This document shows positions 4,700 through 50,011 of a stretch of DNA of 64,000 nucleotides, one piece after another. The position numbers were made by a program, and so were the translations under genes. Position 1 is the stretch's first letter; every line of letters starts with the position of its first letter. Under the pieces are notes generated by a model. That model saw only the letters and a program-made list of their open reading frames with translations. It had not been told where the DNA came from and did no database searches. The DNA comes from Cupriavidus taiwanensis (GTDB taxonomy: Bacteria > Pseudomonadota > Gammaproteobacteria > Burkholderiales > Burkholderiaceae), in NCBI RefSeq assembly GCF_900250115.1, contig NZ_LT984803.1, positions 1,178,001-1,242,000 on the forward strand, read 5' to 3'.

Positions 4700-4735
4700 G
4701 CTTTCTGGGATGGCCGCTCAGGCCATGTGCCAGCG

Positions 4736-34216: not shown

Positions 34217-34228
34217 GCGCAGGCGCGC

Positions 34229-35647
34229 TCACACCACCTTGCCGGGATTCATCAGCCCGAGCGGATCCAGCGCGCCCTTGATCGCCCGCATCATGGCAAG
34301 TTCGACTTCGCTCTTGTAATGCCGGTTTTCCTCGCGCTTGAGCTGGCCCAGGCCGTGCTCGGCCGAGATCGAGCCGTTATGCGAGCGCACGCTGTCGTGC
34401 ACGATGCGGTTGACCTGGTCCTGGTGCGCGAGGAACTCATCGTGGGCGACGCCTTCGGGCGGCGCCACGTTGTAGTGCAGGTTGCCGTCGCCGAGATGGC
34501 CGAAGGTGACCATGCGCGCACCGGGAAAGGCGTTCTGCAGCAGCGCGTCGGTGCACTCGATAAAGTCCGCCACGCGCGATACCGGCACGGCGATGTCGTG
34601 CTTGATGTTCTTGCCGTCTGCCACCTGTGCCAGCGGAATATGCTCGCGCAGGTTCCAGAAGTCGTGCGACTGCTGCACCGATTCGGCCACCACCGCATCG
34701 GCGACCACGCCGGCGTCGAAGGCGGCCGACATCATGGTCTCGAAGATGCCGCGCGCATGGGCTTCGCTTTCGCTGTCGGACAGCTCCAGCAGCACCAGCT
34801 GCGGATGGATGTCGGCGAACGGATAGCGCAGCTGCGGGAAGTGCCGCGTCACCAGCGTCATGCTGAGCGCCGACATCAGCTCGAAGCCGGTCAGCATGGC
34901 GCCGGCGTGCGACTGGGCGATGGCCAGCAGCGCCAGCGCGGCGCGCGGGCTGTGCACCGCGGCCAGCGCCGTGACCGACGCGCGCGGCAGCGGGAACAGC
35001 TTCATCACCGCGGCGGTGATGATGCCCAGCGTGCCTTCGGCGCCGATGAACAGGTCGCGCAGGTCATAGCCGGTGTTGTCCTTGCGCAGGCCGCGCAGCC
35101 CGTGCCAGGTATCGCCCGCGGGCGTCACCACTTCCAGCCCCAGGCACAGCTCGCGCGTGTTGCCGTAGCGCAGCACCGCGGTGCCGCCGGCATTGGTCGA
35201 CAGGTTGCCGCCGATGGTGCAGCTGCCCTCGGCCGCCAGGCTCAGCGGGAACAGCCGGCCGTGCTCGCGTGCCACCTGCTGCAGCTGCTGCAGTACCACG
35301 CCGGCCTCGACCGTGATGGTGTTGTTGAGCGGATCGACCTGGCGGATGCGGTTGAGCCGCTGCAGCGAGATCACCACCTGCGGCGTTCCTTCTACCGGCG
35401 TGGCGCCGCCGCACAGGCCGGTGTTGCCGCCCTGCGGCACCATGGCGATCCGGTGCGCGTGGCAGGCGTGGACCACCTCGGCCACTTCCGCGGTGGTGCC
35501 GGGGCGCAGCACCGCCAGCGCCTCGCCGCGGTAGCGCTTGCGCCAGTCGGTCAGGTAGGGCGCCTGGTCGGCCGCATCGGTCAGCACGTGCGGCGGGCCC
35601 AGCGCGGCGCGGCACAGTGCGAGGAAGGAGTCTTGAGGCGAGGTCAT
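34229..35647 (-). CDS. FAD-linked oxidase (GlcD / D-2-hydroxyacid dehydrogenase type)
   Basis: 472 residues of the VAO/PCMH fold. The FAD-binding half contains LRPGTTAEVAEVVHACH, VPQGGNTGLCGGATP and GSCTIGGNLSTNAGGTAVLRYG; the C-terminal half ends HNGSISAEHGLGQLKREE and GALDPLGLMNPGKV. The group oxidises D-lactate, glycolate or D-2-hydroxyglutarate and passes electrons to ETF, quinone or cytochrome; substrate not resolved. It ends a leftward operon wrbA, DUF2069, oxidase (19-nt gap). Convergent with the amidohydrolase, 12 nt apart. Confidence 0.92.
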   Translation of the reverse strand: MTSPQDSFLALCRAALGPPHVLTDAADQAPYLTDWRKRYRGEALAVLRPGTTAEVAEVVHACHAHRIAMVPQGGNTGLCGGATPVEGTPQVVISLQRLNRIRQVDPLNNTITVEAGVVLQQLQQVAREHGRLFPLSLAAEGSCTIGGNLSTNAGGTAVLRYGNTRELCLGLEVVTPAGDTWHGLRGLRKDNTGYDLRDLFIGAEGTLGIITAAVMKLFPLPRASVTALAAVHSPRAALALLAIAQSHAGAMLTGFELMSALSMTLVTRHFPQLRYPFADIHPQLVLLELSDSESEAHARGIFETMMSAAFDAGVVADAVVAESVQQSHDFWNLREHIPLAQVADGKNIKHDIAVPVSRVADFIECTDALLQNAFPGARMVTFGHLGDGNLHYNVAPPEGVAHDEFLAHQDQVNRIVHDSVRSHNGSISAEHGLGQLKREENRHYKSEVELAMMRAIKGALDPLGLMNPGKVV

Positions 35648-35666
35648 GGCGATGGTTGGACGCGAT

Positions 35667-36799
<1,133 letters not shown>

Positions 36800-36855
36800 T
36801 CATCCTTGAATCCGACAGACGAACCGACAGACCAGATCCAGGAGGTTGCTTGCGC

Positions 36856-38196
36856 ATGATTGGAGCCCGCGTCGCCCGCCTGCGCCGGGAATGGAACCTG
36901 CAAAAGGTGCGTGCCCTGGCGCGCTATGCGCTGCGCCGCGCCGCCGAAGACCGGCTGCCGCAGGTCTCGGCCAGCCTGACCTTCACCACCGTGCTGGCGG
37001 TGGTGCCGGTGCTGACCGTGGCCTTCGCGCTGCTGGCCGCGTTCCCGGTGTTCCGCGACTTCCGCAACGCCATCGAGGCATTCCTGTTCCAGAACCTGAT
37101 TCCCGGCAACGTCAGCGAATCGATCCAGCGCTATCTCGGCATGTTCGCCAAGAGCGCGCGCGGGCTGACCGCGATGGGCCTGGGCGGGCTGATGGTGACC
37201 TCGGTGCTGACCATGCTGACCGTGGAAGACGCGCTCAACGCGATCTGGCGCGTCAAGCAGCGCCGCCCGCTGGCGCAGCGGGTGCTGGTGTTCTGGGCGG
37301 TGCTGACCTTCGGCCCGGTGCTGATCGGCGCCAGCCTGTCGATCAGTTCCTACCTGATCTCGATCTCGGCCGGCTATGTCGGCACCATGCCGGTGGGGCT
37401 GGGCCTGCTGGTGGGCGCGGCGCCGGTGCTGCTGTCGGCGCTGGCCTTTGCCTTCCTGTACACGGCGGTGCCCAACGCCTATGTCGAGTGGCGCGATGCC
37501 ATCGTGGCCGGGCTGGTCGCGGCGGTGGCGTTCGAGTTCGCCAAGCGTGGCTTCGGCTATTTCATCACCGAGATCCCGGCCTACACCGCGGTCTACGGCA
37601 CCTTCGCCGCGCTGCCGCTGTTCCTGCTGTGGATCTACCTGAGCTGGCTGGTGACCCTGCTGGGCGCGACCATCGCCGCTAACCTGCCGGTGATCCGGCA
37701 GGGTTACTGGCGCCGCCGCAGCTTTGCCGGCAGCGAGTTCTTCGATGCGCTGGGCGTGCTGCTGCTGCTCTACCGCGCCCGCGACGAAGTGCCGCGCAGC
37801 GTCGGCGAACTGGACCTGGGGCGCACGCTGCGGGTCGAGGCCGATTACCTGGCCAGCCTGCTCGGCAAGCTCAAGGCCATGCACCTGGTCGGCCGCCTGC
37901 AGCAGGAGCGCGGCCAGGCTCACTGGGCGCTGCTGTGCGACCCGTCGCAGGTGACGCTGCGCACGTTGCACGACCGGCTGGTGCTGAACCTGCCGCGGCT
38001 GCCGCGCACGGCGCTGGCGCAGCATCTGCGCGGGGCGGATGCGCTCAAGTCGATCCTCGACAATCCGCAGCTGGACCAGACGCTGGAGGCGGTGTTCCGG
38101 CAGCAGCCGGTAGACCTGCCGCCGGCGCAGGGGGATGGTGCGGGGCAGCGGCGGACACTGGAGGTGGTGCCGCCCGGGTGGCATGGGCAGGTTTGA
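36856..38196 (+). CDS. YihY/BrkB family inner-membrane protein
   Basis: 446 residues. Six membrane helices in the first about 290 (for example FTTVLAVVPVLTVAFALLAAF; VLVFWAVLTFGPVLIGAS; LGLLVGAAPVLLSALAFAFLY), with LPQVSASLTFTTVLAVVPVLT and AVYGTFAALPLFLLWIYLSWL as family marks. The remaining about 150 residues are soluble and helical and look like a winged-helix-like tail found in longer members. Once annotated as RNase BN, a function since assigned elsewhere; true role unknown, possibly envelope or virulence related. AGGAGG lies 10 nt before the ATG. Confidence 0.9.
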   Translation: MIGARVARLRREWNLQKVRALARYALRRAAEDRLPQVSASLTFTTVLAVVPVLTVAFALLAAFPVFRDFRNAIEAFLFQNLIPGNVSESIQRYLGMFAKSARGLTAMGLGGLMVTSVLTMLTVEDALNAIWRVKQRRPLAQRVLVFWAVLTFGPVLIGASLSISSYLISISAGYVGTMPVGLGLLVGAAPVLLSALAFAFLYTAVPNAYVEWRDAIVAGLVAAVAFEFAKRGFGYFITEIPAYTAVYGTFAALPLFLLWIYLSWLVTLLGATIAANLPVIRQGYWRRRSFAGSEFFDALGVLLLLYRARDEVPRSVGELDLGRTLRVEADYLASLLGKLKAMHLVGRLQQERGQAHWALLCDPSQVTLRTLHDRLVLNLPRLPRTALAQHLRGADALKSILDNPQLDQTLEAVFRQQPVDLPPAQGDGAGQRRTLEVVPPGWHGQV

Positions 38197-38330
38197 TTTG
38201 GGCCGTGGCGGGGGACCCGGCCATGACCGGCCCGAGCCACGGATGCCGGGCAAACCTGCGGCGATGCCAGCGCCAATGCCATCAGCCAGTCGGTGGTCGA
38301 TCGAGGTGGGACGATCGGTCAAGTAACTGT

Positions 38331-38348
38331 CCCGTTTTGTCAAACGGG
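38331..38348 (+). promoter_or_regulatory. Inverted repeat upstream of the response regulator
   Basis: CCCGTTT-TGTC-AAACGGG, perfect 7-bp arms, 74 nt before the regulator ATG and 134 nt after yihY. No T tract follows. Could be an operator or a weak terminator for yihY. Confidence 0.4.
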
Positions 38349-38421
38349 CGGAAGCGCAAGCGCGTACCATCCTGACCCCTGTATCGAGCACCTCGTCCCA
38401 TCTCGCCGCATCTCGCCACGC

Positions 38422-39072
38422 ATGCCGCCACGTTCCATCTCCGTCGTGATCGCAGACGATCACCCGGTGATCCAGCTTGCCGTCAAGGCCACCCTGAGCG
38501 AGATCCCGACCATGCAGGTGGCTGCGACCTGCTCTTCAGGGAAGGAGCTTTTCGCCGCGCTGGAAACGCTGCAGCCCGACCTGATCGTGACGGATTTCTC
38601 GATGGAACGTTCGCAGGGCAATGACGACGGCCTGCGGCTGCTGCACCGGCTCAGGCAGTTGCGGCCCGAGACGCCGATCGTTGTCTTCACGATGCTTACC
38701 AATGGCGGCCTGCTCACGCGCATTACCGAGATGGGCGTCGATGCCATTGTCGGCAAGCACGAGGCGCCGGGCATCCTGAGGCAAATCTGCATCGATGTGC
38801 TGTCGGGCAAGGGCCAGCGCCTGTCGCCGGCCATCGCGGCGCGCCTTTCCAGCGCGGGCGCGCTGCCTGGGGGCAGTGCAAGCCCGCTGTCTCCCAGGGA
38901 AATCGAGGTGGTGCGCATGTTTGCCACCGGCAGCACCGTCACGGAAATCGCCGGCTATCTCCATCGATCCCTGGCCACCGTCGCGACGCAGAAGCGCTCG
39001 GCGATGCGCAAGCTGAACGTCACCAGCAATGCGGACCTGGTCACCTACGCGCGCGACAACGGTCTGACCTGA
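38422..39072 (+). CDS. RcsB-like response regulator (REC + LuxR-type HTH)
   Basis: 216 residues. Receiver domain: ISVVIADDHPVIQLAVKATL with the acidic pair D12-D13, phospho-acceptor D58 in LIVTDFSM, Thr in VVFTML and Lys in IVGKHEAPG. The DNA-binding end LSPREIEVVRMFATG, TVTEIAGYLHRSLATVATQK and RSAMRKLNV closely follows the RcsB pattern (LSPKE.EVLRLFAEG; VTEIAK.LNRS..T.S.QK; SAM.KLGV), more than NarL. The stop shares an A with the kinase ATG (TGATG), so it pairs with that kinase. Start 38422 is used; the frame upstream is unconserved. In enterobacteria RcsB answers envelope stress. Confidence 0.9.
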   Translation: MPPRSISVVIADDHPVIQLAVKATLSEIPTMQVAATCSSGKELFAALETLQPDLIVTDFSMERSQGNDDGLRLLHRLRQLRPETPIVVFTMLTNGGLLTRITEMGVDAIVGKHEAPGILRQICIDVLSGKGQRLSPAIAARLSSAGALPGGSASPLSPREIEVVRMFATGSTVTEIAGYLHRSLATVATQKRSAMRKLNVTSNADLVTYARDNGLT

Positions 39073-42029
39073 TGCCAGGCCCGGAGCAGCCGACGCGGCC
39101 AGCGCCAGTGCAGGATGCCGACTCGGTGGCGCGCAACCTGCAGCGGGAACGCCGCGTGTTCTCGATGGTGATACTGCTGCTGGGCCTGCTGGCCATGGCG
39201 ATCGCCGCGGCCACCGTGCTGGTCCGGCTGAATGGCTCGCTGCGTTCGCAGGAGCAGGTCGCGCGCCTGTATGAGCAGGGTGTGGTCGATGCCGTGCTGG
39301 AACGCCGCAGCACCCTGACCGCGACCAACCTGATTCTGGAGCTCCACGCCAATGGCACGTTCCCGCGGCCACGGCACCAGCCCGCCAGTGGCTTGTGCGC
39401 ACAGGCTGCGCCGTCCGCTGCGCCGGACGATGTTCTGCAGCGCAGCTGCGACCAGGCCGTCAGGACCCTGACCGCGGCCAGCCAGAAGCCGTCGATCGAA
39501 ATGATCTCGATCGCAAGCGGCGCGACCTACCGCTATGAAGCGCCAGGCGCGCGGCCCGCGCCGGCGCTGATGCCCGCTTCGCTGCTCACCGGGATGGTCC
39601 TGCAACGCCTGCAGCGCCGCGATCCGGATCTGCTGCATGCGGCGCGGGAAAAGACCGTGGCCTGGCTGGCATTTCCGGCGCGCGCGCCCGGCGAGGAAGC
39701 GGTGGTCGTGGGCGCGTCGCTGGTCGCAACCGGCAACGAACTCTACGCCATCGTGCTGACGCGTATCCCGCTGCAAGACCTGCTGCGCCCTGCCGGGCCC
39801 AACGTGTCGATCCCGGAGCCGATCGTCTTCGACAGCCGCGGCATTGCCCTGGTCGACTCAGGCGCAAGGGCCGACGCGCAACGGCTGGACGCCAGGCTGG
39901 AGGCAGCTCCGGATGGCCTGTTCCACTGGGTCCGGGGTTATGGCTGGGCGCTGCGCCGCCCGCCGCTGGTGGCGGACTTCGGCCACCTGATCTTTGCGCT
40001 GCCGGTCGGCCAGCAGTTTCAGGCAATGCGGGAGGAACTGCTGGTCATCGGCCTGATCACGGCCGTGCTGGTTGCCTCGCTGTTCGCGATGTACCGCTAC
40101 TGGAACTATCGTTTCCTGACCGCAACCTACGCCGAGGCGGCGCGCGCGCAGCAGATGCTGCATGAGGCCAGGCTTGCGAGCGAGGCGGCGGGCAAGGCCA
40201 AGGTGGCCTTCTTTGCCTCGATGAGCCACGAGATACGCACGCCGCTGTCATCGCTGCTGGGCAACATGGAGCTGGTCAGCCTGGGCGCACTGGAGCCGGA
40301 ACAGCGGGCGCGGGTGAGCGCCATGCAGGTCTCGGCCGAAGGCCTGCTGCAGATCGTCAACGATGTGCTCGATTTTTCCAAGCTCGACGTCGGCGCACTG
40401 AGCCTCGCGGAAGAACCCGTATCGGTCACTGAGCTGCTCGGTCGTATTGCGATCTCGCACGCCCCGCTGGCGGCGCAGCGCCAGCTGAGCTTCCTGGCGG
40501 TGTATGGCAAGGAGATCCCGGCGCGACTCAGGCTCGACCCGGTGCGCCTGGCCCAGATCATCAACAACCTGCTTGGCAATGCGTTCAAGTTCACCCGCGC
40601 CGGCAAGATCGTGCTGCGCGCGCAATGGGTGGACCAGCATCTCGAGATCGTCATCGCCGATACCGGCGTCGGCATACCGGACCAATACAAGGGGCGGCTG
40701 TTCCAGCCTTTCTCTCAGGTCGACGACAACCGCCTGGCCCAGGCGCGGGGGACCGGGCTCGGGCTGTCGATCTGCCGGCGCCTGGTGGAGCGGATGAATG
40801 GCCGTATCACGCTGGACAGCATCCTCGGGGTCGGTACGCGCGTTACGGTCCGGCTGCCGCTCGGCGTGTGCGGTGAGACCCGGCCCGCGCCGCGATGGCG
40901 TTTGCCGCCGAACCGGACGCTGGTGCTGTGCCGTGAGCCGGAGTGCCTGGAAGGGATGCTGAATCATTTCGACTGGGGCACCTGCCTGCCTTCGTCCCGC
41001 TCGTCCATCGACACGCCTGTTGACAAGGGCCGATGGGATTGCCTGCTGGTGGCGGAGGCATTGGATCCGGATGAGGTCATGGCGTGGTGGGGCAAGCCGG
41101 CCTCGATCGTATGGCTGAAGCCGCTGGGGCCGCTGGTCGCGGTAACGCGGCCGGATGGCGGCCTGGACGTGTCTGCCTATAGCCTGCCCGGCATCTTCGC
41201 TGCCGCGCAGGCGGTCATCACCAAGGCCGCGCCACCGCTGCCCCCCGCCGGCCAGTCCGCGCCCGCCCGGCGCGAGGCTCCGGCCGTGCCGCTTGCCGGT
41301 CTTTCGGTGCTGGTCGCGGAAGACAACCGGCTGAACCGCAGTCTGCTGCGCGACCAGCTCCAGGTGCTGGGGGCGACCGTAGTCGAAGCCGGCAACGGCA
41401 ACGAGGCCATGGCAGTGCTGTCGGAGCGGAGCATGGATGCGGTCCTGACGGACATCGACATGCCCGTGATGAATGGATTCGAGCTGCTGCGTGAAATCCA
41501 GCGGCGCCATCCGCAGGTTCCGGTCTATGCCGTGAGTGCCAGCGCGCGGCCCGAAGATGTCGCGCAAGGGCGGGCAAGCGGATTTACCGGCTACCTCACC
41601 AAGCCGGTGGCACTGGCGGCGCTCGCCTCGGTCCTCGCCGGGGTTGCCGCGCCGGCCGGCAACACGCCTGCGCACGCAGCAGAGGAGGCGGCAGCATGGT
41701 CTGGCGACGACGATCTGCCCGACCTGCCGCGGGTCCCGGCCGGGTACGCTGAAGCGTTCCTGGCGCAAACCAGGGCAGACCTGGAAGCGCTCGGCGCGGC
41801 GCGTGCGGGCCGGGACGTGCGAAGCCTGGAACGACTGCTGCATCGCGTCGCCGGCACGCTCGCGGTGCTCGGCCGCTCAGGGCTCGGCGAGCTTTGCGAG
41901 GAACTGCGCAGTTACGCAGCCGAGGCCGGAGGCTGGGACGATGAGATCGAGCTCCAGTCAGCGGCGATCGCGCACGGCCTCGGCCAGGTGCGCGAGCGCC
42001 TGGACGCTGGCGCACCGTCGTCCCGATAG
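39072..42029 (+). CDS. Hybrid sensor histidine kinase with REC and HPt domains
   Basis: 985 residues. Membrane helices at about 31-52 and 322-345 flank a roughly 270-residue periplasmic sensor with no motif I recognise. HisKA with phospho-His H386 in SMSHEIRTPL, ATPase boxes NNLLGNAFKF, DTGVGIPDQYKGRLFQPFSQ and GTGLGLSICRRL; a degenerate linker; REC with acceptor D794 in LTDIDMPVMNGFELL and Lys in GYLTKPV; and an HPt with H924 in LLHRVAGTLAVLG. The whole His-Asp-His relay is on one chain, as in BvgS, and hands over to the RcsB-like regulator encoded just before it. RcsC/RcsD split these parts between two proteins. Confidence 0.93.
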   Translation: MPGPEQPTRPAPVQDADSVARNLQRERRVFSMVILLLGLLAMAIAAATVLVRLNGSLRSQEQVARLYEQGVVDAVLERRSTLTATNLILELHANGTFPRPRHQPASGLCAQAAPSAAPDDVLQRSCDQAVRTLTAASQKPSIEMISIASGATYRYEAPGARPAPALMPASLLTGMVLQRLQRRDPDLLHAAREKTVAWLAFPARAPGEEAVVVGASLVATGNELYAIVLTRIPLQDLLRPAGPNVSIPEPIVFDSRGIALVDSGARADAQRLDARLEAAPDGLFHWVRGYGWALRRPPLVADFGHLIFALPVGQQFQAMREELLVIGLITAVLVASLFAMYRYWNYRFLTATYAEAARAQQMLHEARLASEAAGKAKVAFFASMSHEIRTPLSSLLGNMELVSLGALEPEQRARVSAMQVSAEGLLQIVNDVLDFSKLDVGALSLAEEPVSVTELLGRIAISHAPLAAQRQLSFLAVYGKEIPARLRLDPVRLAQIINNLLGNAFKFTRAGKIVLRAQWVDQHLEIVIADTGVGIPDQYKGRLFQPFSQVDDNRLAQARGTGLGLSICRRLVERMNGRITLDSILGVGTRVTVRLPLGVCGETRPAPRWRLPPNRTLVLCREPECLEGMLNHFDWGTCLPSSRSSIDTPVDKGRWDCLLVAEALDPDEVMAWWGKPASIVWLKPLGPLVAVTRPDGGLDVSAYSLPGIFAAAQAVITKAAPPLPPAGQSAPARREAPAVPLAGLSVLVAEDNRLNRSLLRDQLQVLGATVVEAGNGNEAMAVLSERSMDAVLTDIDMPVMNGFELLREIQRRHPQVPVYAVSASARPEDVAQGRASGFTGYLTKPVALAALASVLAGVAAPAGNTPAHAAEEAAAWSGDDDLPDLPRVPAGYAEAFLAQTRADLEALGAARAGRDVRSLERLLHRVAGTLAVLGRSGLGELCEELRSYAAEAGGWDDEIELQSAAIAHGLGQVRERLDAGAPSSR

Positions 42030-42052
42030 TCCCTGCAGCCCCGGCCTGCCGG

Positions 42053-42073
42053 TTTTCCAACTCCTTTGATTGC
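42053..42073 (-). promoter_or_regulatory. Copy C of the ATCAAAGGA element, upstream of the glycine-zipper gene
   Basis: On the minus strand positions 42073-42054 read GCAATCAAAGGAGTTGGAAA, which matches copies A and B (43467-43486, 43563-43544) at 17 of 20 bases. It lies 24 nt after the kinase stop and 249 nt before the glycine-zipper ATG, with the same orientation toward the downstream gene as the other two copies. Confidence 0.6.
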
Positions 42074-42322
42074 GGCCACGCCCGCGCGAAGTCACCATAG
42101 CGCAGGCGGGTGGGCGGGCCTCCACCTTCGGGCACTTGCCTGGGAAAGCCCCGCGAAACCCGTCGTCTGCCTCCTGCACGGTGGGCGGTTTCTACTTGGC
42201 CCGGGCGTGACGCTGCAGCGGCGAGCGCTGATCGCAGTGTGCCCGGGCATGAATCCATGCCATCCGGGAACCGCAGCGCAGCGCTGGGACACCCCGGGCC
42301 TGGCACCTCAACAGGAGAGTTC

Positions 42323-42829
42323 ATGAGCCTTCGTGCAAATCTAGTCCTTGCCACGTGCACCGCCTGCGTCCTGTTACTGGGCGCGGTACCGGGCACGGCC
42401 GGTGTGGCACAGGCGCACGCGGTCTTGCCGAAACCCGTTGCCTATCCGGCCAGGGGGCAGCTGGCGCACCAGCAAGCGATGGATGATGGCGCCTGCTATG
42501 GCTGGGCCAGGCAGCAGACCGGCGTGGATCCGTCCAGGATCGCCAGCGCGCCGGTGCCGGTGATCGTGCCGGGCGGTGAGCGCGTGGTGGGCGCCGCGCG
42601 CGGCGCGGCTGCCGGTGCCGTGGTGGGAGCGATCGGCGGCGATGCGGGAGACGGCGCCGCAACCGGTGCGGCCGTCGGAGCCGTCGCCGGTGGCATCGCC
42701 CATCGGCAGCACCGCCGGCAGGCGGCCGCGCTCAGCGCGCAGATGCAATCCAGCAATGACTGGGCCTTGTCGTCATACTGGCAGGCCTGGACGGCTTGCA
42801 TGACGGGGCGGGGCTATTCCGTGCAATAG
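42323..42829 (+). CDS. Exported glycine-zipper protein
   Basis: 168 residues. Signal peptide LRANLVLATCTACVLLLGAVPGTAGVAQAHA with cleavage near AHA. The mature part has a YxxC-type start (GACYGWARQQTGVD), then a glycine-zipper hairpin GAARGAAAGAVVGAIGGDAG and GAATGAAVGAVAGGIAHRQ, and ends with WQAWTACMTGRGYSVQ. The two conserved cysteines (CYGW, ACMTGRGY) could form a disulfide. Such zippers insert in or span the outer membrane; the exact role is unknown. AGGAGAG lies before the ATG. First gene after the two-component pair; monocistronic with a strong hairpin behind it. Confidence 0.85.
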   Translation: MSLRANLVLATCTACVLLLGAVPGTAGVAQAHAVLPKPVAYPARGQLAHQQAMDDGACYGWARQQTGVDPSRIASAPVPVIVPGGERVVGAARGAAAGAVVGAIGGDAGDGAATGAAVGAVAGGIAHRQHRRQAAALSAQMQSSNDWALSSYWQAWTACMTGRGYSVQ

Positions 42830-42842
42830 GCTCCCGCTCGCG

Positions 42843-42877
42843 TGGACCAGGCGGACGCATCCGGTCCGCCTGGTCCA
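42843..42877. terminator. 14-bp hairpin between convergent genes
   Basis: TGGACCAGGCGGAC pairs perfectly with GTCCGCCTGGTCCA around a 7-nt loop, midway between the stop codons of the glycine-zipper gene and the lipoprotein gene. No T tract; likely bidirectional terminator. Confidence 0.6.
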
Positions 42878-42906
42878 TCCGCTCCGCCAGGTACGTGCGG
42901 ATACGC

Positions 42907-43383
42907 CTAAAGGACAGCGCAGTCTTCGGCGCTGGCGGCAACGGCCATGTCCACCCCGGCATCGTTGCGCAGGACCACGCACAGGAATGCGCCGGTGGCA
43001 TGTTCGGGTGCGGGAGCCTCATGCCAAAGCCGCGGCAGGCGTGCCGTGGCGGTGCGCAGCTGACCCTGTTCGAGCGCCGGGCCGGCATCCGCGCCGTCCC
43101 TGGCTTCGCGCCAGGTTACCGCGATGGGGCCCGCCGGCTTCGTACCAGGGAAGCAGAAGGATGGGGCCGAGCGTGCGTGGCGCAAGGCGGGGCCGGTCTC
43201 GCATCGCCCGGCGCTCACGGCCAGCACGTCATGATCGGTGTGATTGACGGCCACCACCTTCTTCCACGGCCAGGGTTCCTGGAACGGGCTCAAGGTTTCG
43301 GCATCGGGAATCGCGCAGCCGCAGAGGGCGCTTGCCGCGGCGATGGCAAGGACGCGCGCGGGAATCGAGGGAACGGCATTCAT
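42907..43383 (-). CDS. Small predicted lipoprotein
   Basis: 158 residues starting MNAVPSIPARVLAIAAASALCGC; the lipobox-like ALCGC places a lipidated Cys at about residue 23. The rest has paired cysteines (GRCETGP, SFCFPG, AFLCVVL, AEDCAVL), a KKVVAVNHTDHDVLAVS strand, and no family I recognise. An in-frame start 21 nt upstream exists but both lack a ribosome site. It runs opposite to its neighbours and shares a 283-nt divergent promoter region with the next gene; copy A of the ATCAAAGGA element lies 83 nt upstream of its ATG. Confidence 0.65.
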   Translation of the reverse strand: MNAVPSIPARVLAIAAASALCGCAIPDAETLSPFQEPWPWKKVVAVNHTDHDVLAVSAGRCETGPALRHARSAPSFCFPGTKPAGPIAVTWREARDGADAGPALEQGQLRTATARLPRLWHEAPAPEHATGAFLCVVLRNDAGVDMAVAASAEDCAVL

Positions 43384-43466
43384 TGGGGTAGTCAGTGGAG
43401 GCAACCTGGTGTTCGCCCGACGGGCGTACGACGGTGGAAGAGGGTAGGGCCGTCGCGGCCGCCGCA

Positions 43467-43563
43467 GCTATCAAAGGAATTCGAAATGCTGCACGGCCGC
43501 CAGCGGCAGTGCCGCCGGTCTCACTTCCCTCGCTTCCCTTCGCTTTCAAATTCCTTTGATAGC
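43467..43563. repeat. 20-bp inverted repeat (copies A and B of the ATCAAAGGA element)
   Basis: GCTATCAAAGGAATTCGAAA at 43467-43486 and its inverted partner at 43544-43563 (GCTATCAAAGGAATTTGAAA on the minus strand) match at 19 of 20, separated by 57 nt. They lie in the divergent gap, one 83 nt upstream of the lipoprotein start and the other 103 nt upstream of the next gene, each pointing outward toward its gene. The inner end TTGATA resembles a -35. Too far apart for a simple terminator; no target duplication or transposase, so not an insertion sequence. Best read as paired regulator sites. Confidence 0.65.
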
Positions 43564-43666
43564 CGCGCTCTGCCCTGCCGCGTAAGGTGTGCGCTCTGTC
43601 CAGACGTGACCGGCCGTGCCGGCGCGCGTCGACCGTATTTGATCCACTTCGAAGGAAACCCCTGAC

Positions 43667-44128
43667 ATGACCAAGCGTTGCATTGCGGCGGTCTCTACAA
43701 GCGGCGCGGGAGCGCCTTTCGCAGTCGGCCGGCAAGGGCGCCGCGAAGGGACCGGCGCGGGTGGCCGCGGGCTTGCCAACGTGGTGATCGCGCTGTTGAT
43801 CGCGGGCGCCGGAGCCTCGTACGGGCAGGCCGCTTCCGGCCCGGGGGCAAGCGGCACCACCGGCCAGCCGAAGGCTTGCGCCGCGGCCGGCCTTGGCGCG
43901 GGTTCCGCCATCTGTGCCGGGGCAGCCGATCCCGGCCAGAGCAAGTACAACCTCCTGTACGCAGACGATGCCCCGGCCGGCGAAGGCGTACCGTCGCCCG
44001 GCGTTGATGCCGGTAGCTCCGGCGGGAACGGCGCTGCAGGCGGCGTATCCGGGCGGACCGCGGGCCGCGCGCGCGCTGCCGGAGTCGGCGGTGACGCGGC
44101 GCAAGCCTGGCCCGCCAGCATCCTGTAG
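43667..44128 (+). CDS. Gly/Ala-rich protein with one hydrophobic segment
   Basis: 153 residues, unrecognised. A basic N-terminal 36 residues are followed by LANVVIALLIAGAGASYGQAA, either a membrane anchor or an export signal with cleavage at GQA. The remainder is Gly/Ser/Ala-rich and low complexity with two Cys (KACAAAG, AICAGAA) and SKYNLLYADDAPAGEG. AAGGAAA precedes the ATG at proper spacing. It is followed by the DUF3302-HlyD-NodT genes on the same strand, so it is probably the leader gene of that operon. Composition makes a spurious frame possible, but the ribosome site, hydrophobic segment and copy B of the element upstream argue for a real gene. Confidence 0.55.
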   Translation: MTKRCIAAVSTSGAGAPFAVGRQGRREGTGAGGRGLANVVIALLIAGAGASYGQAASGPGASGTTGQPKACAAAGLGAGSAICAGAADPGQSKYNLLYADDAPAGEGVPSPGVDAGSSGGNGAAGGVSGRTAGRARAAGVGGDAAQAWPASIL

Positions 44129-44227
44129 CTCGCAGTCCTGCCTTGCCCGGAGTTCCCGCGGCAACGCGTCACCGCGGGGCTTCGCATGTCGAACACCGAG
44201 CCATCGCGCTCCATCCCAAACATTCCG

Positions 44228-44611
44228 ATGAAACTTCGTCAATCCCTGCTGACGGGCGCCTGGCTGCTTGCCATGAGCGAACCCGCCCGCGCCTCCCTGC
44301 TGAGTGGAAAAGCGCTCGAGAGCGCGGCCAACGCGATCTCCTGGGTGGTGCTGATACTGGTGCCGCTCGCCGGCCTCTATCTGTTCTGGATGCTCCATGT
44401 CTGGCCGGAAAAAGTCGCCCAGCGCAAGCAACACCCGCAGAAGGAGGCGATCCATGCGCTGTGCCTGCTCTCACTGTTCTTCGGTGGCCTGCTATGGCCC
44501 ATGGCCTGGCTGTGGGCCCACACCAAGCCGGTGTTCTACCGGGCGGCCTACGGCACCGACAAGGCGCCCCAGGACGACGCGGCCAGGTCTGGCGCCGGGG
44601 AGCGGAACTGA
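44228..44611 (+). CDS. DUF3302 inner-membrane protein (YiaW-like)
   Basis: 127 residues from this start. Signal peptide or first helix KLRQSLLTGAWLLAMSEPARAS, then WVVLILVPLAGLYLFWMLHVWPEKVA and CLLSLFFGGLLWPMAWLWAHTKPV, the DUF3302 core. An ATG at 44186 is in frame and has GGGG upstream, so the protein may be 14 residues longer. The family almost always sits just before an HlyD-type protein, as yiaW before yiaV in E. coli; here the stop abuts the next ATG directly. Role unknown, presumably an accessory of that adaptor. Confidence 0.85.
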   Translation: MKLRQSLLTGAWLLAMSEPARASLLSGKALESAANAISWVVLILVPLAGLYLFWMLHVWPEKVAQRKQHPQKEAIHALCLLSLFFGGLLWPMAWLWAHTKPVFYRAAYGTDKAPQDDAARSGAGERN

Positions 44612-45790
44612 ATGGACGCGCTGCTGCTTGGTATCTATGCGTTGATCGTCTGGCTGATCTTCTTCAAGTTCAAATGGCTGCCGTGGAACACCGCTTCGAT
44701 GATCGTTGTGTTCACGATTCCGGTGGTCGCCTTGACGCTGCTGGTGCTCACGCTCAACGTGGTGGCCCCTTCCTCGCACGAGGTCAGGGTCGTCGGCAAG
44801 GTCCTTCAGGTGGTGCCGCAGGTGCGCGGACGCATTGTCGAGCTTCCCGCCGAGGGCAACCGCAGCTACAAGAAAGGGGATGTGCTGTTGCGCATCGATC
44901 CGACCCCCTACCAGGCTTCGGTCAGGCAGCTCGAAGGCCGGCTGATGGCTGACGACGCCGCGCTGGCCGAGGCGCAGGCAAAGGCCCGGCAACTCAGCGA
45001 ATCCGTGCGCGGCGCGGCCGGCAGGGTCGGCGCCGTGCAGGCCAGGCTGTCGCTGGCGCGGCAGCGGCTCAAGGAACATGAGGCGCTGCTGGCGGCCGGG
45101 GCCGGCTCGAAGTTCGACCGCGAAGACGCGCTGGCCCGGCAGCGCGAGCTGGAAGGCGAACTGACCAGCGCGCAAGCCGTCGAGGACGAGGCCAGGCAGA
45201 AGCTGTCGGCCACGAGCCAGGGCGAGTTTGCCGCCATTGCCACCGCCCGCGCCAAGCGTGCGGAAACCGAGGTCTTGCTTGAGAACGCCAGATGGGAGCT
45301 GGACCAGACCGTGTACCGCGCGCCCGCCGACGGCAAGGTCGTGAACCTGCAGGTGCGCGTCGGCACCATGCTGGTTCCGTTTCCCTTCTCGCCGGCATTC
45401 AGCTTCGTCGAGGATGAACAGGAGGTGATCGCGCTCTACAAGCAGAACGAACTTTATAACGTCAAGGCCGGCGATCTCGCCGAGATCTATCTGCCGACCC
45501 ATCCGGGCGACATCATCAAGGCCAGGGTGGATTCGATCGTCTGGGCGCAGTCACAAGGCCAGTTTGCGCAGGGCGGAATGATCCCGAACACTGGGGCGAC
45601 GGAAGTCGTGCCGAACCGGTTTGCGGTCAAGCTGGCGCTGCGGGATGAATCGAAGGGCCTGAGCTTGCCGGTCGGCGCGGTCGGCGCGGGGGCCATCTAC
45701 ACCACGCATATGAAGATGTTCCACATCATTCGCATGGTCTTCCTGAGGGTCAGCTCCAAGCTGAACTATCTCGTGTTCAAGCTTCATTAA
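44612..45790 (+). CDS. HlyD-family membrane fusion protein (YiaV-like)
   Basis: 392 residues. Two N-terminal membrane helices (LLLGIYALIVWLIFFKF and MIVVFTIPVVALTLLVLTLNVVA) anchor it, then a biotinyl-lipoyl half VVPQVRGRIVELPAEGN and KKGDVLLRIDPTPYQ, a long coiled coil at about 100-230, and the closing lipoyl half YRAPADGKVVNLQVRVG. It bridges inner and outer membranes of an efflux path. Start codon follows the DUF3302 stop with no gap, and the OMF gene follows after 10 nt, so the three are one operon. No ATPase, RND or MFS pump is encoded beside it. Confidence 0.92.
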   Translation: MDALLLGIYALIVWLIFFKFKWLPWNTASMIVVFTIPVVALTLLVLTLNVVAPSSHEVRVVGKVLQVVPQVRGRIVELPAEGNRSYKKGDVLLRIDPTPYQASVRQLEGRLMADDAALAEAQAKARQLSESVRGAAGRVGAVQARLSLARQRLKEHEALLAAGAGSKFDREDALARQRELEGELTSAQAVEDEARQKLSATSQGEFAAIATARAKRAETEVLLENARWELDQTVYRAPADGKVVNLQVRVGTMLVPFPFSPAFSFVEDEQEVIALYKQNELYNVKAGDLAEIYLPTHPGDIIKARVDSIVWAQSQGQFAQGGMIPNTGATEVVPNRFAVKLALRDESKGLSLPVGAVGAGAIYTTHMKMFHIIRMVFLRVSSKLNYLVFKLH

Positions 45791-45800
45791 AGGGAAGTCC

Positions 45801-47198
45801 GTGTCGTCTCACCTCAAAAAGACTTTGCCGTTATGGCCGGCGCTTGCGCTCGCCATGCTTTCCGGCTGCGCCCTGCAGGCGCCGCCAGCCGGCGTCGAGC
45901 TCCAGCGCCAGGCGGTGCCGGCGCTGGAAGGCCAGCGCACGTGGGCGCACACCGCGGTCGCGGGCGATCCCGCGGACGGCTGGCTGGCAACCTTCGACGA
46001 CGCCGAACTGCAGCGGCTGGTGCAGGAAGCGGTTGCGCACAACAGCGATCTGAGGCTCGCCGCGGTTCGCGTCCAGCAGGCGCAGGCGCTGGTCGCCATC
46101 GAAAGCAGCGGCCTGCTGCCGAGCGCGGGGGCGAAGGGCCGGGCCGGCAATTCGGAAACGCAGATCCTCTCCATCGGCGCGAGCTGGGAGATCGATCTGT
46201 GGGGGCGCATCCGCGCGCAGTCGCGGGCGGCGCAATCCCAACATGCCGCCACCCTGGCGGACCATGCCTGGGCCCGGCGCGTGGTCGCCGCGGCCACGGC
46301 GCGGGCATGGTTCACGCTGATCCGCAACGCCATGCTGGAAGAACGGCAGCGGCAGGCCGCCGCCATCGCCGAGCAGATGGTGCAGGTCACCCGCCAGCGC
46401 GTTGCGATCGGCGCGGCGCCCGACACCGAGCTGGTGGAAACGCAAAATTCGCTCCGCACGCGGCTCGATGCGCTCAGCCGGTCGGAGCTGGCCCGCAGCC
46501 AGGCTGCGCAAGCCCTGGAACTGCTGCTGGGCCGCTATCCTGCGGGAGCGATCGGCGCGCACGCGACCACGCTGGAACTGCCGGCCGTGCCTGCCGCCGC
46601 GCCGGCCGGCCTGCCGGCGGACCTGGTGGATCGCCGCCCGGATCTCACCGCCGCGGCGCAGCGCGTTGCTGCGGCGTTCGACCTGAAGCAGTCGGCCGAG
46701 GCCGCGCGCCTGCCGCGCATTTCGATCAGCGCGGCCATTACCGGCATCCGCAGCGATGTCTTCCTGCTCAACGAGACCAGCAGCCCGGTCAAAGGACTGA
46801 ATGCCTCGTTCTTCGCGCCGATTTTCACCGGCGGAGCACTCAAGGCCAGGGCGGACTACTACAGCGCCGAGCAGAAGGCCGCGCTGATTGCCTATGGCAA
46901 CAGCGCCCTGCAGGCCCTGGGCGAGGTCGAGGCGGGGTTGCGCGCCGAAGCCAGCCTTGCACAGCGCAGGGAACAACTGCAGGACCGGGTCGAGGCAAGC
47001 CAGGACCTGGTGCGGCGGGAACAGGCACGGGTCCGGATCGGCGCCTCGGACCCGCGCCGCCTGCTGGCGGAGCGGCAGGCGCTGCTCACTGCCGAGATGG
47101 ATCTCATCGGCGCCCATGGCGACCATCTCAACCGGCGTATCGCGCTCTTGCTGGCGTTGGGCGGGGACTGGAGCCAACCGGACCCTGCCAGGGCGTGA
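45801..47198 (+). CDS. Outer-membrane efflux lipoprotein, NodT/TolC family
   Basis: 465 residues from a GTG start with AAGGGAAG upstream. Lipoprotein signal ALALAMLSGC puts the lipidated Cys at 23. The mature part follows the OMF plan: DGWLATFDDAELQRLVQEA, NSDLRLAAVRVQQAQALV, GASWEIDLWGRIRAQ, then the second repeat with PADLVDRRPDLTAAAQRV and RISISAAITGI, and NASFFAPIFTGGALKARADYYSAEQ. Forms the trimeric channel for the HlyD-type adaptor encoded just upstream. Convergent with the Mpo1-like gene, 12 nt apart. Confidence 0.93.
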   Translation: MSSHLKKTLPLWPALALAMLSGCALQAPPAGVELQRQAVPALEGQRTWAHTAVAGDPADGWLATFDDAELQRLVQEAVAHNSDLRLAAVRVQQAQALVAIESSGLLPSAGAKGRAGNSETQILSIGASWEIDLWGRIRAQSRAAQSQHAATLADHAWARRVVAAATARAWFTLIRNAMLEERQRQAAAIAEQMVQVTRQRVAIGAAPDTELVETQNSLRTRLDALSRSELARSQAAQALELLLGRYPAGAIGAHATTLELPAVPAAAPAGLPADLVDRRPDLTAAAQRVAAAFDLKQSAEAARLPRISISAAITGIRSDVFLLNETSSPVKGLNASFFAPIFTGGALKARADYYSAEQKAALIAYGNSALQALGEVEAGLRAEASLAQRREQLQDRVEASQDLVRREQARVRIGASDPRRLLAERQALLTAEMDLIGAHGDHLNRRIALLLALGGDWSQPDPARA

Positions 47199-47210
47199 CG
47201 CCACTATCCC

Positions 47211-47528
47211 TCAGAACGGAATCCGGCCCCGCCAGATATCGGCATACATCACCCAGTCGCCCATCAGGCTGTAGAGCGGATGCCGGAACGTGGCCGGCCG
47301 GTTCTTCTCGAAGCCGAAGTGCCCGACCCAGGCGAAGCCATAGCCGGCCACCACCGCGGCGAGCAGCCACCAGGCATTGCCGGTGGCGGCCAGCGCCGCC
47401 AGGCACAGCAGCGCCACCGTCGACCCGGCAAAATGCAGGCGCCGGCAGGTGCGGTTCTGGTGCTCGCCGAGGTAGTAGGGGTAGAAGGCCGCGAAATTCT
47501 CGAACTCGCGCGCGCGCGCATGGGCCAT
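47211..47528 (-). CDS. Mpo1-like/DUF962 membrane protein
   Basis: 105 residues. EFENFAAFYPYYLGEHQNRTCRRLH then two hydrophobic helices (GSTVALLCLAALAATG and WWLLAAVVAGYGFAWVGHFGFEKN) and RHPLYSLMGDWVMYADIW make a clear DUF962 protein. The yeast member Mpo1 is an Fe(II) dioxygenase for 2-hydroxy fatty acids; the His residues (EHQN, RLH, GHFGF, RHP) that could bind iron are all here. Bacterial role unproven. GGAGAC precedes the start. Confidence 0.9.
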   Translation of the reverse strand: MAHARAREFENFAAFYPYYLGEHQNRTCRRLHFAGSTVALLCLAALAATGNAWWLLAAVVAGYGFAWVGHFGFEKNRPATFRHPLYSLMGDWVMYADIWRGRIPF

Positions 47529-47627
47529 GGCTGTCTCCGGCAGGTCTGGTCTGCTGCAGTGTAGACCTTCAGCGCCGGGATGTAGCGGCGACGGCCGCCG
47601 GCGTGGCCGGCCGTCCGGGGCGCAGCA

Positions 47628-48452
47628 TCAGCCCGCTGCCACCACCTTGCGCGCGAACGCCGCCAGCGCATCGAGCACTTCGTCCGGGCGCTCGCCCATC
47701 AGCGCATGGCCGCACGGCACCGTCACCACGCTGGCGCTGCGCATCTTGCCGGCCAGTGCCTGGGCTGCTTTGGGCGAAGTCATCATGTCCTTGCTGCCGG
47801 TGACGAACAGCGCCGGACAGGCCGCCGCCGCGGCGGCTTCCTCGCCATGGGCATAGGCGTTGCAGGCCGAGAAGTCATTGTGGAACACATGCGCCTGCGG
47901 ATTGTTGCGCGACACGCGCTCCATCAGCCGCTGGCTGCCACCGTGCATCCACGCGCCCGGTCCCGGCGACGAGGGCTTGTTGGCGAGGCTGGAGTGCGAC
48001 CAGGCGTTGACCATGGCGATGGCGTCGCCCTCGCGATTGAGCGAGGCGTCCAGCAGCGCGTCCGACACCTTCATCGGATAAGCCGTGGCCAGCAGGCCGA
48101 TGCCGCGCACCGCCTGCGGATGCCGCGCCGCGCATTCCAGCGCGATCAGCGAGCCCATGCTGTGGCCGAACACGAAGGCCGGCGCGGTGACGCCGGCGGC
48201 CGACACCAGCGCCATGACCCAGTCCGCCATGGCCTCGACCGTGGCCAGCGGCGCGCCCTTGCTGCGGTTGTGGCCGGGCAGGTCCACCGCCAGCACCGAG
48301 AAGCCATGGTTGGCGAACCAGCGGGTCTGCAGCGCCCACACGCTGTGGTCGTTCTGCGCGCCATGGACAAAGACCGCGCAGGGCAGGGCCGGATCGAAGG
48401 GTTTGCCGCCGGTATAGGCGTAGGCCGGCTGGCCGGCAAGGTTCAGTTCCAT
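47628..48452 (-). CDS. Alpha/beta-hydrolase
   Basis: 274 residues. Oxyanion-hole HGAQNDHSVW, nucleophile S98 in FGHSMGSLIAL, acid Asp in FVTGSKDMMT and His in VPCGHALMGERP complete the triad. Substrate unknown. Its ATG overlaps the stop of the sulfhydrylase gene (TGATG), so the two are translationally coupled; a link to homoserine esters is possible but not shown. Confidence 0.9.
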   Translation of the reverse strand: MELNLAGQPAYAYTGGKPFDPALPCAVFVHGAQNDHSVWALQTRWFANHGFSVLAVDLPGHNRSKGAPLATVEAMADWVMALVSAAGVTAPAFVFGHSMGSLIALECAARHPQAVRGIGLLATAYPMKVSDALLDASLNREGDAIAMVNAWSHSSLANKPSSPGPGAWMHGGSQRLMERVSRNNPQAHVFHNDFSACNAYAHGEEAAAAAACPALFVTGSKDMMTSPKAAQALAGKMRSASVVTVPCGHALMGERPDEVLDALAAFARKVVAAG

Positions 48453-49768
48453 CAGGCTTGCCCTCCCTGCTTGCCCGCGCCCATGGCCTTCTCGGCCGCC
48501 TTCAGGCCGCGCTTGAGATCGTCGATCAGGTCATCGGCATCCTCCAGGCCGACCGACAGCCGGATCGTGCCTTCGGTGATCCCGGCCGACTGCAACGCGG
48601 CCGCGTCCATGCGGAAGTGCGTGGTCGACGCCGGGTGGATCACCAGCGAGCGCGCGTCGCCGACATTGGCCAGGTGCGAGAACAACGCCAGGTTTTCGAT
48701 AAAGCGCTGGCCGGCGACGCGGTTGCCCTTCAGGTTGAAGCTGAACACCGCGCCGCAGCCGCGCGGCAGCAGGCGCTTGGCCAGTTCGTAGTCGGGGTGG
48801 GATTCCAGTTCCGGGTACGACACCGACTCCACCATCGGGTGCGAGACCAGGAACTGCACCACCTTGCGGGTATTGTCGACATGGCGGCTCATGCGCAGCG
48901 GCAGGGTCTCCACGCCCTGCAGCAGCTGCCACGCCGCCATCGGGTTCATGCAGGCGCCGAAATCGCGCAGGCCCTCGCGGCGCGCGCGCAGCAGGAACGG
49001 CGCCACCGTGCTTTCCTCGGTGAACACCATGTTATGGAAGCCCTGGTACGGCTCGGACAGCTCCGGGAAGCGCCCCGAGGCTTCGAAATCGAAGGTGCCG
49101 CCCTCGACCAGCACGCCGCCGATGGTGGTGCCGTGCCCGCCCAGGAACTTGGTGGCCGAGTGGTAGAGCAGGCCGGCGCCATGGTCGAACGGCCGCAGCA
49201 GGTAGGGTGTGGTGAAGGTGGAGTCCACCAGCAGCGGGATGCCGTGGTCCTGACCCAGTTGCGCCAGGGTCGGAATGTCGAGCACGTCCAGCCCGGGGTT
49301 GCCCAGGGTCTCGCCGAACAGCAGCCGGGTCTCGGGGCGGATGGCGGCGCGCCAGGCGTCTATGTCGCGCGCCTTGACGAAGGTGGTCTCGATGCCGAAG
49401 CGGCGCAGCGTGTAGTGCAGCAGGTTGTGCGAGCCGCCGTACAGCGCCGACGACGCCACGATATGCGCGCCCGCGCCCATCAGCGTGGCCACCGCCAGGT
49501 GCAGCGCGGCCTGGCCCGAGGCCGTGGCAATGGCGCCGGCGCCGTTCTCGAGCGCGGCGATGCGCTCCTCGAGCACGGCCACGGTGGGATTGGAAATGCG
49601 GGAATAGACGTGCCCCGCGCGTTCCATGTTGAACAGCGACGCGGCATGCTCGCTGTCGCGGAACACGAAGGACGTGGTCAGGTGGATGGGGGTGGCGCGG
49701 GCCCCGGTGGCGGGGTCGGGCGCGGCGCCGGCGTGCAGCGCCAGCGTGTCGAAGCGGGTTCCGGACAT
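48452..49768 (-). CDS. O-acetyl/O-succinyl-homoserine sulfhydrylase (Cys/Met metabolism PLP enzyme)
   Basis: 438 residues. Fold-type I PLP enzyme: TLALHAGAAPDPATGARATPI, SFVFRDSEHAASLF, YSRISNPTVAVLEERIAALE, the cofactor-binding Tyr in SALYGGSHNLL, and PLP Lys207 in YHSATKFLGGHG. It makes homocysteine directly from the O-acyl homoserine and sulfide. The length and RFDTLALHAG start favour the O-acetylhomoserine (MetY) type, but MetZ cannot be excluded. The start at 49768 is family-like; 25 upstream codons are not. Coupled to the hydrolase gene behind it. Confidence 0.9.
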   Translation of the reverse strand: MSGTRFDTLALHAGAAPDPATGARATPIHLTTSFVFRDSEHAASLFNMERAGHVYSRISNPTVAVLEERIAALENGAGAIATASGQAALHLAVATLMGAGAHIVASSALYGGSHNLLHYTLRRFGIETTFVKARDIDAWRAAIRPETRLLFGETLGNPGLDVLDIPTLAQLGQDHGIPLLVDSTFTTPYLLRPFDHGAGLLYHSATKFLGGHGTTIGGVLVEGGTFDFEASGRFPELSEPYQGFHNMVFTEESTVAPFLLRARREGLRDFGACMNPMAAWQLLQGVETLPLRMSRHVDNTRKVVQFLVSHPMVESVSYPELESHPDYELAKRLLPRGCGAVFSFNLKGNRVAGQRFIENLALFSHLANVGDARSLVIHPASTTHFRMDAAALQSAGITEGTIRLSVGLEDADDLIDDLKRGLKAAEKAMGAGKQGGQA

Positions 49769-50011
49769 GGTCGGTCGGCCTTGAGTTGTCTCCGGCCAGC
49801 ATCGTAGCATCGTGCGCCTGCCCACGCGCGCCGCGGCCCGCAAACCGGCCTCCCGCTTTACTTTGGCGACGGGTTTGGGCTAGCATCGGCCAACGGGCAA
49901 GGCGCCCGCACACCCTTGGACAGACAACAAAGTGACCGGCATCGTCGCGCCAGCGGCGACGGCGATGCCTTCAGTTCCAGCTCGGACAGAGCGCAGGCAG
50001 CGGAGACCATC

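What the first reader, a model, noticed from the sequence alone, without database searches (positions are those of the whole stretch)
42053..43563. A 20-bp element occurs three times, each upstream of an envelope gene beside an RcsB-like phosphorelay
Copies at 43467-43486, 43563-43544 and 42073-42054 share GCWATCAAAGGARTTNGAAA (A vs B 19/20; C vs A and B 17/20). Read toward the gene, each has the same orientation and lies upstream of a different unit: lipoprotein (83 nt), Gly/Ala-rich gene plus pump operon (103 nt), glycine-zipper protein (249 nt). A 17/20 match is very unlikely by chance in 64 kb. The simplest reading is a local regulon of the adjacent response regulator, an undescribed envelope system. 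That the regulator binds these sites is inference.
Basis: partly seen in the sequence, partly recalled or inferred. Interest (0 to 1): 0.75.

Follow-up and report, generated by a model that had tools for sequence, protein, structure and literature searches.

The report
Three-promoter operator beside an RcsB-like phosphorelay
A 20-base DNA site found three times in this soil bacterium marks three promoters of envelope genes, and in two genera it is found beside one particular two-component regulator, which most likely switches those promoters on.

Summary
Observation confirmed. The 20-mer occurs three times in the 7.0-Mb genome at up to 3 mismatches, each time in this locus. It is a phylogenetic footprint: 46 copies in 18 Cupriavidus loci have 11 of 20 columns invariant; five Paraburkholderia loci with another gene order add 18 copies. 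In 64 of 64 copies an NANNNT (-10-like) hexamer lies 19 or 20 nt downstream, placing the element near -51 to -32, a class II activator position. Of 398 family genomes, 22 of 22 with the regulator ortholog carry element plus -10; of 376 without it, 4 do: one module lacking its regulator, and three weak strays. The third element comes and goes with the glycine-zipper gene. Best reading: the phosphorylated regulator binds these sites and activates a local envelope regulon; binding and activation are inferred. A well-supported regulon of a known kind; I found no description of it.

The parts
38422..39072 (+). Response regulator of the RcsB/NarL type (REC + GerE helix-turn-helix)
   Evidence: Pfam PF00072 64.7 bits and PF00196 50.3 bits; best solved relatives are RcsB, E 1.6e-30; NCBIfam RcsB equivalog 118.6 bits, below its 235 cut-off
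39072..42029 (+). Hybrid sensor kinase: N-terminal sensor, HisKA, HATPase, REC, Hpt (phosphorelay in one protein)
   Evidence: Pfam; AlphaFold2 model of the N-terminal part (window 39105-40181), mean pLDDT 82.9: long helix, mixed alpha/beta part, long helix
42054..42073 (+). Element C, read toward the glycine-zipper gene: TTTCCAACTCCTTTGATTGC
42093..42098 (+). -10-like hexamer CACCAT, 19 nt after element C
42099..42194 (+). Position of the leader RNA that in relatives is about 100 nt and terminated; in the window diverged (24.2 bits), with a weak terminator-like hairpin at 42162-42189
42323..42829 (+). Glycine-zipper protein (GZ), third target unit
   Evidence: Pfam PF13436 37.7, PF13488 31.6, PF13441 (YMGG-like) 30.7 bits, each above its cut-off
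42907..43383 (-). Putative lipoprotein (LP), first target unit; no Pfam or NCBIfam family
   Evidence: Cys23 invariant in 15 aligned sequences, the window's included
43441..43446 (-). -10-like hexamer TACCCT, 20 nt after element A
43467..43486 (-). Element A, read toward the lipoprotein gene: TTTCGAATTCCTTTGATAGC
43544..43563 (+). Element B, read toward the exported-protein operon: TTTCAAATTCCTTTGATAGC
43583..43588 (+). -10-like hexamer TAAGGT, 19 nt after element B
43667..44128 (+). Small Gly/Ala-rich, probably exported protein (GA) with conserved KY(N/D)LLY motif; first gene of the presumed operon
   Evidence: no Pfam; 41 relatives among the 7997 candidates scored, the few with an organism name being Cupriavidus or Paraburkholderia; motif
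44186..44611 (+). DUF3302 protein
   Evidence: Pfam PF11742 60.2 bits
44612..45790 (+). HlyD/EmrA-type periplasmic adaptor
   Evidence: NCBIfam best match MdtN 136.8 bits, below its 376 cut-off
45801..47198 (+). Outer-membrane efflux channel of the NodT/TolC type
   Evidence: Pfam PF02321 102.2 bits; TIGR01845 216.9 bits, above its 210.05 cut-off

Best explanation
The 20-bp element is the operator of the adjacent RcsB-like response regulator and works as a class II activator site. The hybrid kinase senses an envelope signal and relays phosphate through its own REC and Hpt domains to the regulator. The phosphorylated regulator, probably a dimer, binds TTTCNAANTYCTNTGATNGY centred near -41.5, next to a poor -10 hexamer, and recruits RNA polymerase. 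It thereby switches on three units at once: a lipoprotein, a small exported protein with a DUF3302-HlyD-outer-membrane-channel operon, and a leader RNA followed by the glycine-zipper protein. Shown here: the sites, their conservation, the -10 spacing, and co-occurrence with the regulator and with the target genes. Inferred: transcription start sites, binding, activation rather than repression, and the signal.
For: Exactly 3 sites in 7.0 Mb, at this locus. Element plus -10 in 18 of 60 genus genomes, every match at the module, reversed control 0. In 398 family genomes: 22 of 22 with the regulator ortholog above 300 bits carry it, 4 of 376 without; none of the 29 genomes that have only weaker regulator relatives (206-265 bits) carries it (Fisher p 1.9e-32, which ignores shared ancestry). 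11 of 20 columns invariant in 46 Cupriavidus copies, 1.60 versus 0.44 bits per column inside and outside; 10 of these 11 also hold in the 18 Paraburkholderia copies (read). NANNNT at 19 or 20 nt in 64 of 64 copies; the same window shifted gives mean 4.5, maximum 14. For the 18 Paraburkholderia copies alone, which were found without using the hexamer, 18 of 18 against mean 1.2, maximum 5. Five Paraburkholderia loci have another gene order, and one element in each lies before a reading frame that precedes the regulator and kinase genes; that frame was Pfam-tested in one locus and is EAL. Element C is intact in 10 of 10 regulator-bearing Cupriavidus loci with the glycine-zipper gene and in 0 of 7 without it; one of those 7 keeps a decayed copy.
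Against: No binding or expression data. Regulators 50-53% identical (L082-L085) share nearly the same recognition helix, yet their loci hold no match of 6 bits or more, so the helix alone does not predict the site. The dyad expected for a dimer site is weak: centre 9.5, p 0.0105, uncorrected for 17 centres tried. One genome (G033) keeps sites A and B without the regulator. Co-occurrence cannot separate the regulator from its co-inherited kinase or an unseen partner, and related genomes are not independent. The NANNNT hexamer was defined on the Cupriavidus sites it was then counted on; the family pattern was loosened after seeing two of the five Paraburkholderia loci; the 300-bit line was drawn in the gap between 300.3 and 264.9 after seeing the list. 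The sigma-70 scan of 42000-43700 found no promoter, but its shuffles gave 0.0 too, so it says little.
Confidence: 0.85

Rival explanations
1. The element is bound by another factor (an RcsA-like partner, or an alternative sigma factor), and the adjacent regulator is linked only by inheritance.
For: The steady spacing to -10 would also fit a sigma-factor -35 region; regulators with nearly the same recognition helix elsewhere lack the element.
Against: A 20-bp block with 11 invariant columns is longer than the roughly 7-bp -35 element of ECF sigma factors (recalled). Among the eight module proteins scanned, only the regulator has a DNA-binding domain in Pfam. The association with the regulator survives gene rearrangement in Paraburkholderia.
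Confidence: 0.1
2. The regulator binds the element but represses the three units.
For: Position -51 to -32 overlaps the region used by polymerase; the direction of control was not tested.
Against: The steady 19-20 nt spacing to -10 hexamers far from TATAAT, such as TACCCT, TAAGGT and CACCAT in the window, fits activation better; this is inference.
Confidence: 0.04
3. A dispersed repeat (mobile-element remnant or REP-like sequence) or chance.
For: With 3 mismatches allowed, the bare 20-mer hits 44 of 60 genus genomes, and its reversed control also hits many.
Against: The composite pattern hits only the module in the genus; its reversed control gave 0 in the genus and in the 398 family genomes; conservation over 46 + 18 sites.
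Confidence: 0.01

Closest known systems
Enterobacterial Rcs phosphorelay (RcsC/RcsD/RcsB)
   Same: RcsB is the closest solved relative of the regulator by sequence. In E. coli, osmB, ymgG, ymgD and the small RNA rprA are listed among Rcs-regulated genes (passages of PMC3599342). Here too a protein with a YMGG-type glycine zipper and a small-RNA-like leader lie behind the presumed operator.
   Different: Hpt sits inside the kinase instead of in a separate RcsD. Regulator and kinase score below the NCBIfam RcsB and RcsC cut-offs, and the kinase's best model is TorS (308.6 bits, also below cut-off), not RcsC. Only three sites in the genome, against the large Rcs regulon (recalled).
Bordetella BvgAS/BvgR
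   Same: Hybrid kinase with HisKA-REC-Hpt and a NarL-family regulator; in Paraburkholderia an EAL-domain gene is added, as BvgR is in Bordetella (recalled).
   Different: No Venus-flytrap (SBP_bac_3) domain among the Pfam matches of this kinase; the sites are local.
YiaW/YiaV- or YibI/YibH-type DUF3302-HlyD pairs (names recalled)
   Same: DUF3302 next to a HlyD-like adaptor.
   Different: Here an outer-membrane channel follows, an exported protein of no known family precedes, and the set sits beside a phosphorelay with its own conserved promoter element.
RprA-like regulator-controlled small RNAs
   Same: In relatives, a roughly 100-nt terminated leader directly behind the presumed site of an RcsB-like regulator.
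   Different: No Rfam match; it lies 5' of the glycine-zipper gene, so it may be an attenuated leader.

Membership tests
NarL/FixJ (LuxR-type HTH) response regulators | REC domain plus GerE HTH | tested here: met
   PF00072 64.7 bits, PF00196 50.3 bits, both above cut-off
RcsB (strict) | NCBIfam RcsB equivalog cut-off (NF008098, 235 bits) | tested here: not met
   118.6 bits
Rcs phosphorelay | RcsC equivalog kinase (NF008099, 920 bits) | tested here: not met
   294.8 bits
Rcs phosphorelay | Hpt carried by a separate RcsD protein | tested here: not met
   Hpt lies inside the kinase, residues 893-974; the genome was not searched for a separate RcsD
Rcs phosphorelay | RcsF / IgaA input | not tested
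   not searched in the genome
Class II activated promoter | activator site at fixed distance just upstream of a -10 hexamer | tested here: met
   64 of 64 sites with NANNNT at 19 or 20 nt; by sequence only, start sites not mapped
Class II activated promoter | activation by the bound factor | not testable with these tools
   needs reporter or in vitro transcription
Dimeric NarL-type operator | inverted repeat of two half-sites | tested here: inconclusive
   centre 9.5, p 0.0105 uncorrected over 17 centres
BvgAS | Venus-flytrap sensor domains in the kinase | tested here: not met
   no such Pfam domain among the five matches at E 0.001
Known RNA families (Rfam, incl. RprA) | match at gathering score | tested here: not met
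   0 matches in window 34000-50000 and in L052, L055, L065; other loci not searched

The most novel reading that the evidence does not exclude
The third promoter makes a regulator-controlled small RNA that ends at a conserved terminator, and the glycine-zipper protein is made only when polymerase reads through it. The phosphorelay would thus control its envelope module both by transcription and through an RNA switch or trans-acting RNA. In Paraburkholderia the cassette (element, leader, terminator-like hairpin) appears to be duplicated in front of a second lipoprotein gene. In the window itself the leader has diverged and its terminator is weak.
Probability: 0.45. Interest if true: 0.65.

Novelty: new member of a known kind. 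Interest (0 to 1): 0.5.

Why it matters
It gives a complete, directly testable regulator-operator-target set for an envelope phosphorelay of Cupriavidus and Paraburkholderia that I found no description of; the set is present in the laboratory strain C. metallidurans CH34. If binding is shown, it defines an operator for an RcsB-like regulator outside the enterobacteria. It also offers a natural series (gene loss with operator decay, regulator loss with operators kept, rearranged order with operators following their genes) for studying how a local regulon evolves.

Tried and rejected
Chance or dispersed repeat: rejected. The bare 20-mer at 3 mismatches over the genus was too noisy (44 of 60 genomes, reversed controls also hitting), so a composite pattern with -10 was used. 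Three stray composite hits (G165, G008, G012) score 20.9, 18.9 and 11.9 bits against at least 27 for intact module sites and stand alone; treated as chance, their neighbouring genes not examined. Rfam found nothing in the stretches searched. Leader covariation is weak: 1 of 18 predicted pairs has a two-sided change, so no fold is claimed beyond the terminator. The automatic hairpin search returned nothing for the five Paraburkholderia glycine-zipper leaders, G029 and the window; the Paraburkholderia hairpins were then found with a pattern written for those sequences. RNA-model hits away from the module (5 at 29.5-32.2 bits; window 4669-4791, 21.0 bits) were taken as chance and not examined. 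Paper searches listed no description of this system that I recognised from titles and abstract starts; the lists were capped (15 of 54; 8 of 16; 6 of 11). The CH34 start-site paper PMC7563307 was seen only in passages; its supplement, which could hold the start sites, was not open to me. The CH34 record carries no gene annotation at this place here. AlphaFold2 of the lipoprotein was weak (mean pLDDT 64.9). No fold search could be run.

Full report
OBSERVATION. In the whole genome (7,009,602 bases, 3 contigs) there are 3 matches at up to 3 mismatches, namely these; the reversed-pattern control gave 1. Read toward its gene each copy is TTTCNAANTCCTTTGATWGC.

NEIGHBOURS. 38422-39072 is a REC-GerE regulator, closest among solved structures to RcsB. 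39072-42029 is a HisKA-HATPase-REC-Hpt hybrid kinase; its N-terminal part is modelled as a mixed alpha/beta region between two long helices (mean pLDDT 82.9). Then come a glycine-zipper protein (GZ), a putative lipoprotein on the other strand (LP), a small exported protein (GA), DUF3302, a HlyD-like adaptor and an outer-membrane channel. No inner-membrane transporter was recognised in this operon, so 'pump' is not shown.

GENUS. A kinase ortholog (E at most 1e-120) is present in 17 of 119 genomes searched, the own one included and the others of the same genus, and a regulator ortholog of at least 75% identity in 17 of 60 genus genomes, own included. I fetched the other 16 loci and that of G033. 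Regulator-kinase-[C-GZ]-LP-A/B-GA-DUF3302-HlyD-channel is the common plan; the bracketed part is missing in seven loci, and G033 lacks regulator and kinase. The four window flanking genes used as queries were not found in the fetched flanks of the other loci, so the module sits in different neighbourhoods. Named carriers include C. necator strains UYPR2.512 and A5-1, C. neocaledonicus, C. alkaliphilus and C. pauculus and C. metallidurans CH34.

FOOTPRINT. 46 sites (18 A, 18 B, 10 C) give 1.60 bits per column inside the 20 bp and 0.44 outside (20 columns upstream, 50 downstream), with 11 invariant columns. Ten of the 11 also hold in the 18 Paraburkholderia sites; position 6 varies there (read). 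A matrix built without the window's own sites scores the three at 39.6, 33.8 and 29.1 bits in the 64 kb; the next best is -1.9. The two best-conserved columns outside the element are an A and a T that form NANNNT. In 64 of 64 sites such a hexamer lies at 19 or 20 nt and never at 18; shifted windows average 4.5 of 64, maximum 14. The hexamer was defined on the 46 Cupriavidus sites, so the cleaner test is Paraburkholderia: 18 of 18, shifted windows mean 1.2, maximum 5. If the hexamer is -12 to -7, the element covers about -51 to -32 (inference). The simple sigma-70 scan found no promoter in 42000-43700, but none in its shuffles either.

SPECIFICITY. The composite pattern (element, 18-20 nt, NANNNT) matches 18 of 60 genus genomes, every match at the module, reversed control 0. 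A regulator ortholog above 300 bits occurs in 22 of 398, and 22 of 22 carry the element; the 300-bit line was drawn in the gap between 300.3 and 264.9. Of 376 without it, 4 do: G033 and the three strays. None of the 29 genomes with only weaker regulator relatives at E 1e-60 does. Fisher p is 1.9e-32, but related genomes are not independent. The more telling facts are the second genus and the events below.

NATURAL EXPERIMENTS. (i) Element C is intact in 10 of 10 regulator-bearing Cupriavidus loci that have GZ and in 0 of 7 that lack it. One of the seven, G041, keeps a decayed copy of C (17.6 bits) next to what looks by eye like the 3' end of GZ, while A and B stay intact. (ii) In G033 regulator, kinase and element C were not found, and a transposase-like gene (judged by eye) lies beside GZ; A and B are intact. 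(iii) In five Paraburkholderia loci the operon lies on the other side of the regulator, yet elements precede GA, GZ and, in place of LP, a reading frame followed by regulator and kinase genes. This frame was Pfam-tested in one locus and is EAL (PF00563, 140.9 bits). Three loci have a fourth element before another small lipoprotein-like gene. Regulators 50-53% identical in four other loci (L082-L085) have no element although the recognition helix is nearly the same; this counts against predicting the site from the helix alone.

LEADER RNA. Directly after the -10 hexamer of element C, 9 of 10 Cupriavidus loci (from which the model was built) and, independently, G033 (87.6 bits) carry a roughly 100-nt sequence; in 8 of these 9 it ends in a strong hairpin with a T-run, in G029 the T-run is poor. 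The model matches the corresponding stretch in the window at 24.2 bits (42099-42194) and in three of five Paraburkholderia loci at 18.8-21.0 bits. These are weak scores, comparable to a hit taken as chance, but at the exact expected position. In 60 genus genomes the strong hits (49.8 bits or more) are these 10 only. The five Paraburkholderia loci have a G+C-rich hairpin with T-run there (the automatic search missed them). In G037, G043 and three Paraburkholderia loci the T-run ends 14-18 nt before the GZ start that I chose; G002 looks the same by eye, although the script used a later start for it. That leaves little room for another promoter, so GZ would be made by read-through (inference). 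In the window the terminator is weak (1 terminator-like site found, 0.8 expected by chance). Covariation is slight and Rfam has no match. Small RNA versus attenuated leader is open.

MECHANISM. Most likely the kinase senses an envelope condition, relays phosphate to the regulator, and the regulator activates the promoters of the envelope genes from a class II site. The logic resembles Rcs: in E. coli, osmB, ymgG, ymgD and the small RNA rprA are listed among Rcs-regulated genes (passages of PMC3599342). It is not Rcs by the tests made: the RcsB and RcsC model cut-offs are missed and Hpt is inside the kinase.

VERDICT. Observation confirmed, interpretation supported in sequence, binding unproven. 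A local regulon of a known kind, with a leader RNA as the least expected part. The paper searches listed no description of it that I recognised; several lists were capped and most subscription papers are not in that library.

Noticed in passing
L065 (C. metallidurans CH34; same place in L185): A 745-codon reading frame resembling a phospholipase C (judged by eye) lies between the glycine-zipper and lipoprotein genes.
   Followed up: no
L184 and L068 (G033): Where regulator, kinase and element C would be, transposase-like and tricarboxylate-transporter-like genes lie (judged by eye); sites A and B remain without a regulator.
   Followed up: partly
L182, L180, L181: A fourth element in three Paraburkholderia loci precedes a leader that aligns with the one before the glycine-zipper gene, then a small lipoprotein-like gene.
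   Followed up: partly
window 43667-44128: The small exported protein with the KY(N/D)LLY motif has 41 relatives among the candidates scored; the minority that carry an organism name are Cupriavidus or Paraburkholderia; no known family.
   Followed up: partly
L080 9672-12926 compared with the window kinase: The Paraburkholderia kinases carry about 110 extra residues between sensor and HisKA part compared with the window's kinase; Pfam showed no domain there in the one tested.
   Followed up: no
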